Assembly: GCA_025201345.1 (NCBI GenBank)
Contig: JAIXMG010000002.1
Span: 1,674,001 to 1,738,000, forward strand
Direction: 5' to 3'
DNA from: Thamnidium elegans
Taxonomy: Eukaryota; Mucoromycota; Mucoromycetes; Mucorales; Mucoraceae
DNA: 64,000 nt
In this document: piece by piece, positions 57,242 through 63,000 of the stretch
Layout of the letters: the number at the start of each line of letters is the position of its first letter
How positions within the stretch are numbered: the stretch's first letter is position 1
Program-made: the position numbers and the translations under genes
Notes under the pieces: model-generated
Told to the model about the DNA's origin: nothing
The model's database searches: none
Seen by the model: only the letters and a program-made list of their open reading frames with translations

Positions 57242-57846
57242 TTATAATTGAAGTACAAGACCTATGATAAATGTAACAAGCATAAACCCAGTAGCTGGTG
57301 TAATCTGAGTTCCAAATGAAGGTGAAACGGACTGACTAGACGAAGGGGCACTAGTTGAACCAGTTGTGGTAGGTGCAGTCCAGGTAGGAGAGACTTGTGT
57401 TGGTCCTACTCCAGATCCAGATGGTAAAGGAGCAATCGATGTAGTAGGTACAGCTGCACAAATACCTGTTGCAATTCTGGATTGTTCATTTGCGTCAATA
57501 CTATATTCAGGACAAAGATTAAAGCATTGTTGAATCAAGCGCTAAATTTAAAAATTAGTATATCATATATATATATATATATATATATATACTTTTTTTA
57601 AAAGCCTACCTGTGCTCCACATTGGCAGCTATAATCAACTGGACCACATCCATGAAGTAAGCTTTCTTCGATAGCTTTACATGCTTGAAAACTAATTTAT
57701 TTTGGTTTGAGATTTTATCGTAACGAATAATGAAAAAGTACTTACTTTGCTTCTGCCGCACAACCAATGACAGCAGATACAGTGTACACACCAAATTGAA
57801 GTACAAGGAAAATAGCAGCAACCCAAGTAATTTGACGATTGAACAT
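57242..57846 (-). CDS. CFEM-like cysteine-rich GPI-anchored protein
   Basis: Three exons (57846-57746, 57691-57610, 57541-57242) join in phase to 160 residues. A signal peptide (residues 1-25, ITWVAAIFLVLQFGVYTVSA) is followed by an eight-cysteine region: IGCAAEA, FQACKAIEE, LLHGCGPVDYSCQCGAQ, QQCFNLCPEY and GICAAV. The D-Y-S-C-Q-C segment resembles the D-x-x-C-x-C core of CFEM domains, which bind haem iron or take part in wall adhesion in other fungi. A Thr/Ser/Pro-rich stalk and a C-terminal hydrophobic signal (PATGFMLVTFIIGLVLQL) indicate GPI anchoring. The cysteine spacing is not a perfect CFEM match, so a lineage-specific cousin is possible. Confidence 0.75.
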
Positions 57847-58084
57847 TGAGTAACAAAGAATAATAAAAAGAAAAGAAAAAGAGAATTATTATGTCGTTTG
57901 AAGATCTCCCTTTATACACATACACTTTTTTATTGAATCCCCCCTCAATTTAAATGCAGGATACAAAGGAAGTCTTTTTTCCCTCTCTCTTTTCTCCTGT
58001 AAGAGAACGAGAGTGATCTGCTGACGCAAATAAAATTATAAACTTGTCTGATTATTATAATATATGTACACAATTTTATTTTAT

Positions 58085-59686
58085 TTATTCTAATTTAGAT
58101 GTCATTAATCCAAACATTTTACGGACTTCATCAACAGTCATTGTTCCTAATACTTCACCCTTTCTGGTTCTAACATTGACAGTACCTTGATCCATTTCCT
58201 TTTGTCCAACTACAAAAATAAAGTTGTATTGATCAAGTTGTGCTTGACGAATCATCTTGTTTAATCTATCACGAGGTGATTTATCAACATCTACATAGTA
58301 CTGTTCTCTAATAGTCGTTTCTGCATTCTCTCCTAATGATAATTCCTTGGCTACCTTTTGAGCGTATTCTCCAAACTGTGTAGAAACTGGAATAACTACA
58401 CCTTGACGTGGACTTAACCAGAATGGCCATTTACCTCCTGTATGTTCAATCAAAATAGCCATCATACGTTCAATAGACCCTAAAATGGCTCTATGCACAA
58501 TCACAGGCGTACGCTCTACATCGTTTTCATCTACATATTTAAGTCCGAATCTTTGTGGTAATTGAAAATCAAGTTGGATAGTGGCAGTTTGATGTGATTT
58601 TCCACTAGAGTCTTTGACCATGATATCAATCTTGGGACCGTAAAATGCACCATCACCTTCTTTAATTGACCAAGGTCTACCAGTGGCATTTAGGGCTTTG
58701 GTTAAAGATGATTCAGCATGTGTCCATTCTTCAAGACTACCCATGTATTGTGTCTCGGGTCGGGTGGAAAGCGTTAAGTCGTAGTGAGGGAATTGGAATG
58801 CGGAGTAGACACGATCAACAAAAGAAAGACACGACGTGATCTCGGATGCAATGTGGTCTTCAGCACAAAAGATGTGGGCGTCGTCTTGATGGAATCGACG
58901 CACTCTTGTTAATCCTGAAAGTGCACCTGAAGCTTCATTTCTGCATAAAATTATATATATAAATAAACAAACAAAAAAAAACCTTTTTTTTTTTTACCTG
59001 TGGAGAGGACTAAAATCAGCTAAACGAATAGGTAAATCACGATAGGATTTGGGTGTACTATCAAAAATTAAACAATGACCAGGACAATTCATTGGTTTCA
59101 ACCCAAATAATCCTTCATCAGTATCAATCACTTCATCGTGATTATGAGAACACTTTTGCTCTCTTCCACTTTGTACCATAAACATATCGTCTTTATAGTT
59201 TTGCCAGTGGCCACTGGTCTCCCAAAGATCCTTCTTGTAAATCAAAGGTGTCATTACTTCTTGGTACCCATATCGTGCGTACTCGGATCGCAAAAACTCT
59301 TGAAGCTTATGCACAATACGGGTTCCGTGTGGTAACATAAAAATTGAACCGGGACTGACGGCGTGTGTCATAAATAATGATTGTGCTTTACCGATAGCAC
59401 GGTGGTCGTGTTCGTTGGTCTTTGAAACGTCTATAAAAAAATGGTTTAATTTTCTGGGACTTTTGAAGTTGGTGATTTATTTTTTTTACCATTGACTTTA
59501 GATACTTTGTTTAAGCAACCTTTAGAGGTATGCAATGAACGTGCTGTGATAGCATATGCTTGCAATAAAGCACCTGTATGAAAAAAAAAAACTTTGGTTA
59601 GTTTTTTTGTTTTTTGTTTCGATTTGGTAAGGTTAATACGAACGAGAATTGGCTTGCAAGGATCGAGTCAATTGCCGAGGAAACAT
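58085..59686 (-). CDS. MST1: Mitochondrial threonyl-tRNA synthetase
   Basis: Class II synthetase charging mitochondrial tRNA-Thr. Exons 59686-59644, 59573-59490, 59430-58998 and 58940-58085 join in phase to 471 residues, close to yeast Mst1 (462). The N-terminus MFPRQLTRSLQANSRALLQA is a likely targeting peptide, and the protein goes straight to the catalytic core, without the TGS and editing domains of the cytosolic enzyme. Motif 2 (RVRRFHQDDAHIFC) and motif 3 (ILGSIERMMAILIEHTGGKW) are intact. The zinc ligands Cys in PMNCPGHC and His in RFHQDD are present, as is the C-terminal anticodon-binding domain (VVIPVSTQFGEYAQKVAKEL). The first donor (GTTCGT) is weak but the only one keeping phase. 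Confidence 0.93.
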
Positions 59687-60090
59687 TGTATATGTAATAA
59701 AAAAAAAGAGGAATGGGTATCGGGTTACCAGGTCTGTTTAAACACCCCCAAGCTCTTGAAGAGGGGGGCAGTCACCTACGTACCGGTGTTTCAAAAGTTT
59801 TTGACGTTTCAGTAACACATAGTAAGCTACTGTTGTATATTGATTTTCAGGGCAACATGGTTTAAAGCTATTTTTTTTTTAGTGAGTGGGCTAAATACAC
59901 ATTTGAATAGAAAAATAACAATATATAAAAAAAAGAATTAAAAGTATTTTACAAGTGATAATGTAAGCTCTCATAATTATGATCCCGTCTTTTTATGTAT
60001 GCATATCAGTCTACTGAATAGTTTAAAAAGATAGTTTATTTATTTTGTTAAAAAAATAATACACAGGCATAAAATAAATTACAGTAAAGT
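59687..60090. other. Promoter of the ThrRS gene / 3' flank of the PARP gene
   Basis: 404 bases, AT-rich; a short frame at 59594-59815 on the plus strand overlaps exon 1 in antisense and is a shadow. Confidence 0.5.
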
Positions 60091-63000
60091 TTACTCTTCA
60101 TCTGTTTCCATATAATCATCATCACCGTCTTCTTCTTCTTCTTCTTCTTCTTCCTCTTCCTCTTCCTCTTCCTCTTCCTCTTCTTCGGTTTCGTCTCCAG
60201 TATGTTCTGCTTCTTCTTCAGTCTCCATATCAGATTCGGAGAGTCCTAATTTTTTAATAGAGAACTTGTATTCACCAGAGACGTCTTCTTTAAGCCAATG
60301 TTGATACTTTTTGATATGGCTCATTGTTGCTTGCGTACGACATTCTTTACCGTACATGCATTGAGGTTTACTTTTAAGGAATTCTACAATATGAAAATAT
60401 TAGAATACGACTTTGAAAGTAAAATAAAATAATAGAAAATTACCAGGAATATCAGCATCTTTACTAGTTACTCTCTTTTCTAACATAATGGCTACAATGC
60501 TATTTGCACATTTACGACATACTTTACTGTCGTGACATAAATCAAGAGGCGTATCCCATTTTTTCTCTATTTATGCAAAAAACAATAATAATTAGTTTTT
60601 GTATTGTACAAATAATTTTAAAAAAGAAAAAAAAACTTACTGTAAATTCCAGATTCTATAAACTCGTTCAAGTCTTGATCAAAGATACCTTGAGGAGCAA
60701 GGTTTTCATAAGTCATATAAGATTCAATCACTTCTCTTTCAAATTCATTAAATCGAATATAGTTATAACTCTTGAAGTTATGTTCTTGCAAAGGCTTTAA
60801 ATTCCTTTCTTCAGGTTTGGAACATAAGAAGCAACTGGTAGAGTCTCGAATAATGAGCAGGTATCGGATTTTGACTCGGTTTTGGTCGTAGACTGCAAAT
60901 TCGTTGTGTTTAAGGAAAGGTGTAGAGTTGATTTGACCGTCTTCACCAGCAGTACGAACAAAGGGGATACAAGGACCCATAGGAATACATACACCGTTGC
61001 GGTCATAGACCGCATTGTCGGGGTCTGGTGTACTGCTTCCTTCTCCCTTCATCGAATCTAAGTTATCGGTTGAGAGTTCGTAGTTGCTCTGGTCGTAGAT
61101 GGCGGTCTTGGATCCTAATGCAACTTCACATACAAATAAGAGACGGTAAGCAGATTGATATGTACCGTAGTTTTCAGTAGAGTAGTTTAATGATTTTGCG
61201 AAAGTATCACCAAAGTAAACACCACTACCAAGCATCGCACCCTGTAAATAAAATAGAGTTAGTAATCTTTATCTCTTTTATATATGTATACTTATATAAA
61301 ACTTACATTTGAAGTAGATGTACGTGGACTAACTCGAAGCCCTTGTTTTAAAATACCCATAAAGTTACCAATACGTGATCCATGCCATAAAAGCTTTCGA
61401 TTGGATTCCTGTTCAAATGGACGGAACCTTTGTTCTTCGTCTGCACGGTTGACAGCCAACAAATTAAGAATTTCGTAAGTTCCAGTAGCAGTAGATTGCA
61501 TATAGTTATGTATAAGTTGATATTCAGTAGATTCAGGTTCAATGGGCCTTAAAGAGCAGTTTAATGCATGGTAAGCGTATTGCAATGGGTTGATGGTATT
61601 GAGATGATGTTTGGCGGCCAAGATAACATTAGCTGCAAATCCAACATAACTTAAATCTTCTATACGCGATAATTCGTTTTTGAAGTTGTTGTTGTAGTTT
61701 TCAAGAAGGTTTCTGAACGGTTGGTTTCGATCGTCGTTGCGAGGTAACAAGCGAGCGTAGTCGACACATTGTTGAGCAATTTTAAATTCCCATGCTAAAT
61801 TAGGAGAGAGGTGAGTGAGCTACTAAAAAAAATATTTTTATATTACTTACTTCTAGATTCCATTACTTTAGCTTTGTCAGAGTACCGTTTTCTACATTCT
61901 TGAAGCTTAAAATTCATTCTTTGAACATTAAAAAGAATTTGACGGGCTGATTCAATAGTAGATTGGGGTACTTGACCAAGGGGCATATCAACATGAGAAT
62001 CATCATACACTCTTGTAAGATAAGTATGATTACAAATAAGCTTCATCACGTTTATAACTTCTTGAGGCAACTGAGCTGGAATAGACGATTTTAAAAAGTT
62101 AAAGTCTTTAACAATAACGTCTCGTGGATGCTGAGAAATCTTAAGAAGCCCATATCGACCTTGCTTTTGTACAAAGGATGTTAAACGGTCCTCCCAAATG
62201 TTGGCTGTCTTAGCTTTAAAAATCAATTTGAATTCAGCAATAGCTTCTTCAAGATGCAAAAATGGAGTCTTTTGATGTTGACCTTCATCGCCATAGTTAC
62301 CCCAACGTGTCCAGAGAATATTGAGGTTTAAAATCTTGTTATGAATAATACTCATCTTGTAGAACCTAAATGTATATATTTATACGTTAAATTTTTGGGT
62401 TTATAAAAGAAAATAAATTCTTATACACTTACGATGTATCTGTATATACTCCCCAACCTCGAAGCTCTACTTTGATTAACATAATATCATATGGTTTGCT
62501 ATTCTCGTCCAACATGACATATCCTACTTTTTCCAACTTCGAATAAGAATCCACTTTAACAGTATCATCATCGGTCTGGGTAGAAAGTGTATTGTCTTTA
62601 GCTTTTTCAATATCTTTTTCTTTTTGAAGTATTTCTCTTTCAATTCTGGCGTCCTCGTCAATGGTTTCAGTAGATATGTAGTCAATATCCATAGGAGAAT
62701 CTTCTTCTTCACGAGGTTCTTGAAGGGGTTGTGTAATTTTAGCCGTAGGTTCGAGACGTACGAAGGCGGTGTAAAGGTCTTTGCTATGTCTTTGATAAGC
62801 ATATTCGACTGGTGTGAGCCCTAAAGATATATATTTTAAAAAAGAGCGCAACAAATAAAAGACAGCTTAAATAATTACCATGTATATCGCGCATTTGTAA
62901 GAGCTTCTTGAAAATCTTGGGGCTCATTTTTTCAGCGACGAATTCTAAAATACCGATATTTTCATGCGAAATACCTCCAATACTTCCAGCAATAAACGAT

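What the first reader, a model, noticed from the sequence alone, without database searches (positions are those of the whole stretch)
60091..60660. PARP carrying its own PAR-binding-type zinc finger and a polyglutamate tail
Downstream of a complete ART domain the same reading frame encodes KPQCMYGKEC, seven residues, H, five residues, H. That follows the PBZ pattern (K-x2-C-x-Y/F-G-x2-C ... H-x5-H) of APLF and CHFR, differing by one extra residue between the second Cys and first His. PBZ fingers bind poly(ADP-ribose). A writer that ends in a reader, next to another cysteine cluster and 19 glutamates (possible auto-modification sites), would be a self-reading PARP. I know of no described PARP with this order, though I could not search.
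Basis: partly seen in the sequence, partly recalled or inferred. Interest (0 to 1): 0.75.

Follow-up and report, generated by a model that had tools for sequence, protein, structure and literature searches.

The report
Fungal PARP with CHFR-like PAR-reading tail
In Mucor-type moulds, an enzyme that makes poly(ADP-ribose), a DNA-damage signal, ends in a zinc-finger tail resembling the one the human checkpoint protein CHFR uses to read that signal, so writer and likely reader are fused in one protein.

Summary
The minus-strand gene encodes a predicted 2,689-residue ankyrin-WGR-PRD-ART PARP (20-exon model) whose last exon carries KPQCMYGKECRTQATMSHIKKYQH. This passes Pfam's PBZ cut-off (24.7 vs 22.7 bits), and its C-x5-C-x7-H-x5-H spacing equals human CHFR's. 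The 'cysteine cluster' resembles the second half of CHFR's cysteine-rich domain: zf-CRD matches 9 of 9 tails that contain that part, but only 2 reach the cut-off. A profile of the whole tail finds only CHFR (E 3.8e-9) and APLF's PBZ in the PDB at E<=10. Nine named Mucorales PARPs carry all or part of the tail. The end of ART and the start of the CRD-like part lie in one exon. One PARP gene was found in the genome. The 19-Glu run is a microsatellite and not conserved. PARP+PBZ proteins are known outside fungi; one survey could not find PBZ in fungi, so this is a new variant. PAR binding is predicted, not shown: AlphaFold left the finger at low to middling confidence, and without the PBZ the CRD-like part does not find CHFR in the PDB.

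The parts
60298..60369 (-). PBZ zinc finger (K2598-H2621): C-M-Y-G-x2-C-x7-H-x3-Y-x-H
   Evidence: PF10283 24.7 bits over cut-off 22.7; profile match to CHFR and APLF PBZ chains
60641..60857 (-). First part of CRD-like region (from residue 2480; contains CFLC), same exon as the end of the ART domain
   Evidence: gene model; zf-CRD PF17979 24.1 bits over the joined tail, cut-off 26.3; this C-x2-C is present in 8 of 9 tails, Pilobolus lacks it
60444..60566 (-). Second part of CRD-like region (contains CRKC), own exon
   Evidence: both Cys of this C-x2-C invariant in 9 of 9 tails; this exon scanned alone has no Pfam match
60384..60443 (-). Last intron (60 nt, GTAATTTT..TTGTAG)
   Evidence: P0001 has a 19-residue non-conserved insert at the same place, as if an intron were read through
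60567..60640 (-). Second-last intron (74 nt, GTAAGTTT..AAATAG)
   Evidence: tail continuous across it in named homologues
60128..60186 (-). Poly-Glu run (19 E) coded by a TCTTCC-type microsatellite
   Evidence: not conserved
60852..61531 (-). PARP catalytic (ART) domain in two exons (intron 61242-61306); H-Y-E at LLWHGSR, GVYFGD, NEFAVYD
   Evidence: PF00644 79.0 and 66.6 bits; positions of the three motifs; the same columns are invariant in a 16-row alignment of homologues (window not a row)
61571..62073 (-). PARP regulatory (helical) domain in two exons
   Evidence: PF02877 31.0 and 17.7 bits
62185..62365 (-). WGR domain
   Evidence: PF05406 55.4 bits
63604..64000 (-). Ankyrin repeats; gene model continues past the window to about 69460 in window numbering (L002)
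   Evidence: PF00023, PF12796; gene model

Best explanation
A Mucorales PARP of the ankyrin-WGR-PRD-ART type carries, after its catalytic domain, the C-terminal PAR-reading module known from the ubiquitin ligase CHFR: the second half of the cysteine-rich domain plus the PBZ finger. SHOWN by sequence: the architecture, the CHFR-type PBZ, conservation of the tail in Mucorales, an intact H-Y-E triad, and no second PARP found. INFERRED: WGR senses DNA breaks, ART makes PAR on itself and neighbours, and the C-terminal module holds that PAR, in cis on the modified enzyme or in trans between enzymes. The enzyme would thus be retained and concentrated where it has already worked (a feed-forward loop), and the CHFR-like ligase of the same genome may read the same PAR and limit it.
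Against: No biochemical data. PBZ passes Pfam's cut-off only in the window sequence (relatives 21.0, 20.9, 15.0, 14.8 [fragment], 9.5 bits; none listed for Mucor saturninus and Halteromyces). zf-CRD reaches its cut-off in 2 of 9, and in full-length P0003 falls to 17.9 bits. The CRD-like part without PBZ does not find CHFR in the PDB, nor align significantly with the genome's own CHFR-like CRD; that gene in turn finds only RING chains in the PDB at E<=0.01, and its degenerate finger is seen by eye, with no Pfam PBZ match. AlphaFold gave the PBZ low to middling confidence (44-51 in P0004; 69-77 in the window exon) and Foldseek found nothing for the exon model. The two basic residues of the PBZ consensus are absent (also in CHFR). 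In Halteromyces the finger has lost Tyr-Gly. Pilobolus lacks the first C-x2-C.
Confidence: 0.6

Rival explanations
1. The tail is a structural zinc module or protein-protein docking site; the finger has drifted and no longer binds PAR.
For: PBZ below Pfam cut-off in relatives; finger degenerate in Halteromyces; the genome's CHFR-like ligase also has a degenerate finger; basic pair missing.
Against: Both consensus aromatics (CxYG and HxxxYxH) and all four ligands kept in the window and in the Mucor and Rhizopus relatives; CHFR, which binds PAR, lacks the basic pair too.
Confidence: 0.25
2. The tail reads PAR but to limit or shape the chain (product inhibition, chain-length control, release from DNA) rather than to retain the enzyme.
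For: The tail starts directly after the ART domain in the same exon, so it may lie close to the active site; no PARG found (controls silent) and PMC4245714 reports no obvious one in Mucor or Rhizopus, so self-limitation could matter.
Against: No direct evidence; the ART-tail arrangement was not examined.
Confidence: 0.1
3. Gene-model artefact: the last exons belong to another gene.
For: Gene model is computational and no transcripts were at hand; four relatives' models stop before the PBZ exon.
Against: End of ART and first CRD-like Cys pair lie in one exon; database models of Mucor, Rhizopus and two Phycomyces species join the same parts; P0001 reads both last exons in one frame.
Confidence: 0.03
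4. The 19 glutamates are the auto-modification site read by the finger.
For: Acidic tails recur in several relatives; HPF1 not found (control silent), so Glu/Asp modification is conceivable.
Against: Run is a microsatellite; P0001 has mixed residues and both Phycomyces proteins have none.
Confidence: 0.02

Closest known systems
Human CHFR C-terminal CRD-PBZ (PDB 2xoc, 2xoy, 2xoz, 2xp0)
   Same: Order CRD second half then PBZ, C-x5-C-x7-H-x5-H spacing, CRTQ at the second Cys; profile E 3.8e-9
   Different: Here it follows an ART domain, not FHA-RING (CHFR's N-terminal domains from its full name, PMC4030884); the first half of the CRD is not matched
Clade 1A PARPs with ankyrin repeats (e.g. Dictyostelium)
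   Same: Ankyrin-WGR-PRD-ART; PMC2964712 (passages) describes clade 1A in Dictyostelium, fungi and Paramecium
   Different: No CRD-PBZ tail mentioned in the passages read; not compared by sequence here
PARPs carrying a PBZ in Dictyostelium, Entamoeba, Capsaspora and lancelet (PMC4245714 section 3.4)
   Same: Writer and PBZ reader in one polypeptide
   Different: Outside Fungi; order of domains and presence of a CRD not stated in the passages read
APLF PBZ fingers (2kqb, 2kuo)
   Same: Zinc finger type; weak profile hit, E 0.35-0.4
   Different: Only the PBZ part of the profile is matched, no CRD-like part

Membership tests
PBZ finger (PF10283) | C-x-[FY]-G-x2-C ... H-x3-[FY]-x-H | tested here: met
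   24.7 bits vs cut-off 22.7
PBZ finger (PF10283) | Two basic residues after the second Cys (consensus in PMC4030884) | tested here: not met
   TQ in their place; human CHFR, an accepted PBZ, has TQ too
PBZ finger (PF10283) | Binds poly(ADP-ribose) | not testable with these tools
   needs a binding assay
CHFR-type CRD-PBZ module | Sequence similarity over CRD second half plus PBZ | tested here: met
CHFR-type CRD-PBZ module | CRD recognised by its own model over the cut-off | tested here: inconclusive
   24.1 bits in window vs 26.3; 2 of 8 homologues reach it; CRD-only profile does not find CHFR
CHFR-type CRD-PBZ module | Full-length CRD | tested here: not met
   matches start at profile position 51-79 of 158; the ART domain lies directly upstream
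CHFR-type CRD-PBZ module | Zinc-site fold | tested here: inconclusive
   PBZ low confidence; PARP chains filled the fold lists
Clade 1 (1A) PARP | WGR + PRD + ART with H-Y-E, ankyrin repeats N-terminal | tested here: met
Clade 1 (1A) PARP | Groups with Dictyostelium/Paramecium 1A proteins in a tree | not tested
   those sequences were not fetched; tree holds the window, nine Mucorales rows and ten others

The most novel reading that the evidence does not exclude
In Mucorales the poly(ADP-ribose) signal is largely closed on itself: the genome's only PARP is also its main PAR reader, through a tail captured from a CHFR-type ligase, and that ligase keeps a diverged copy of the same module, so writer and ligase share and compete for one signal.
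Probability: 0.38. Interest if true: 0.72.

Novelty: new variant of a known kind. Interest (0 to 1): 0.55.

Why it matters
A survey of PAR systems used PBZ as a marker of PAR signalling and could not find it in Fungi (PMC4245714, section 3.4). A conserved CHFR-like CRD-PBZ on the PARP itself would fill that gap, and it offers a simple system, with one PARP gene found, in which self-reading of PAR can be tested by changing one domain.

Tried and rejected
Rejected: the poly-Glu run as a functional site; the 'extra residue' as an oddity; two-gene artefact.

Led nowhere or spoke against: a search with the Phycomyces tail had 91 candidates and 0 hits at E<=10, and did not return the Rhizopus protein P0004 (914 aa, inside its size range), so its silence says little. 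CRD-only profile vs PDB: no CHFR. hhalign of CRD-like tails vs the genome's CHFR-like CRD: probability 0.9%, E 0.064. The spliced CHFR-like gene vs PDB at E<=0.01: 36 sequences, RING chains, no CHFR. The second CRD-like exon alone: no Pfam match. P0001 and P0002, also scanned, have no zf-CRD match; they are fragments that lack most or all of that part, and are outside the '9 of 9'. Foldseek and VIA for the whole P0004 model: the 50 rows shown in each are PARP chains, so the tail is not tested; none for the 96-aa PBZ exon model. PARG, microbial PARG, HPF1 and WWE gave no match, but the controls were silent too, so absence is not shown. The genome searches are exon by exon: one search did not list the split, degenerate finger of the CHFR-like gene, so 'one PBZ' and 'one PARP' are lower bounds. 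Literature: searches gave listings in which, as far as titles, abstract starts and the passages opened go, I saw no PARP with a CHFR-type tail and no PBZ in Mucorales; the library lacks most subscription papers (Ahel 2008: not looked up, nothing seen; Oberoi 2010: not held).

Rows dropped: P0011's tail was not scanned or aligned because its model breaks up; P0007-P0009 tails were cut before read-through residues. One search lists 120 of 292 hits; I did not see the rest.

Full report

THE FINGER. KPQCMYGKECRTQATMSHIKKYQH sits at 60369-60298. The last-exon frame passes the Pfam PBZ gathering score (24.7 vs 22.7 bits), and a six-frame search of the 34-Mb assembly lists only this match (exon by exon, a lower bound). 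The motif in relaxed form appears in 0 of 3000 shuffles of the protein.

THE TAIL IS A CHFR-LIKE MODULE. The joined tail matches the human CHFR CRD-PBZ crystal chain (2xoc, E 2.6e-5). A profile of 11 tail rows gives CHFR at E 3.8e-9, and the only other hits up to E 10 are two APLF PBZ sequences. Pfam zf-CRD, the cysteine-rich domain family, is matched in 9 of 9 tails that hold this part (window 24.1 bits; homologues 20.5-27.9; cut-off 26.3, reached by 2 of 9), including three tails whose models end before the PBZ; in the full-length Mucor protein it falls to 17.9 bits. Against this: the CRD-like part alone does not find CHFR in the PDB, and its second exon alone has no Pfam match. The C-x2-C at 60519-60508 is kept in 9 of 9 tails and that at 60833-60822 in 8 of 9; that the two pairs form one zinc site, as the last one of the CRD, is inferred.

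RELATIVES. One search (292 hits, 120 listed) returned nine named fungal PARPs with ankyrin repeats; their genera all belong to Mucorales, in six families. The precomputed Pfam lists show neither PF10283 nor PF17979 for any of the 120 listed rows, so that annotation misses the tail. The finger is complete in the window, P0001, Mucor saturninus, Rhizopus stolonifer and two Phycomyces; it begins inside the fragment P0002, is degenerate in Halteromyces, and is not reached by the models of Cokeromyces, Sporodiniella, Pilobolus and Fennellomyces. Only the window sequence passes the PBZ cut-off. In the ART tree (20 rows) the window and the nine Mucorales rows group together (92/84, short of the starred level), the window next to Mucor saturninus (94/86); an ankyrin PARP without the tail (P0026) falls outside on a long branch. 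That the organism belongs to Mucorales is inferred from this.

NOT AN ARTEFACT. The end of ART and the first CRD-like half lie in one exon (60641-61241). P0001 carries a 19-residue insert at the place of the window's last 60-nt intron; flanks are conserved and the insert is not.

GENOME CONTEXT. One PARP gene (two exon matches), one macrodomain match, one ADP-ribosylhydrolase locus (two exon matches). PARG, microbial PARG, HPF1 and WWE gave nothing, with silent controls. PMC4245714 (passages and section 3.1.1 read) reports no obvious PARG in Mucor and Rhizopus. On contig C45 lies a RING gene with a CRD (zf-CRD 51.7 bits) followed, by eye, by a degenerate finger, C-x5-C-x8-H-x5-H without the aromatic (no Pfam PBZ match). 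Its PDB search lists RING chains only. So the genome probably holds two modules of this kind; that one gave rise to the other was not shown.

MECHANISM. From established knowledge, WGR-PRD-ART enzymes make PAR at DNA breaks and PBZ fingers bind it. With one PARP found, PAR read by this finger most likely comes from this enzyme: binding in cis or between copies would retain and concentrate it. In human cells CHFR's PBZ binds PARylated PARP1 (PMC4741567, abstract and passages). Structure prediction did not settle the zinc site: pLDDT 44-51 for the finger in P0004 (residues 860-883), 69-77 in the window exon, no Foldseek match.

NOVELTY. PMC4245714 section 3.4 names PARP+PBZ proteins in Dictyostelium, Entamoeba, Capsaspora and lancelet and states the motif could not be found in Fungi. 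PMC2964712 (passages) describes clade 1A PARPs with ankyrin repeats and notes clade 1 PARPs in Rhizopus and Mucor but none in Phycomyces blakesleeanus; the Phycomyces protein found here (P0005) differs from that. The combination is therefore a new variant of a known kind.

Noticed in passing
L009:2105-3705 (- strand), contig C45 of the same assembly: CHFR-like RING gene with a CRD (zf-CRD 51.7 bits) and, by eye, a degenerate PBZ split over two exons; no FHA match is listed on this contig (15 matches).
   Followed up: partly
P0005, P0006: Phycomyces blakesleeanus and P. nitens encode a full ankyrin-PARP, whereas PMC2964712 (passages) reports no PARP for P. blakesleeanus.
   Followed up: no
window 57242-57890 (-): Small predicted secreted or GPI-anchored cysteine-rich protein with a Ser/Thr-rich stretch and hydrophobic ends, CFEM-like by eye (label recalled); no Pfam hit at E<=0.1.
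   Followed up: partly
window 58085-59690 (-): Next gene downstream looks like a (mitochondrial?) threonyl-tRNA synthetase, by eye from the ORFs; not scanned.
   Followed up: no
G000 contig C8:336241-336405 and C8:333810-334007: The only macrodomain match listed for the genome lies about 2.2 kb from an FHA match, both on the + strand; possibly one FHA-macrodomain gene, which would be another ADP-ribose reader.
   Followed up: no
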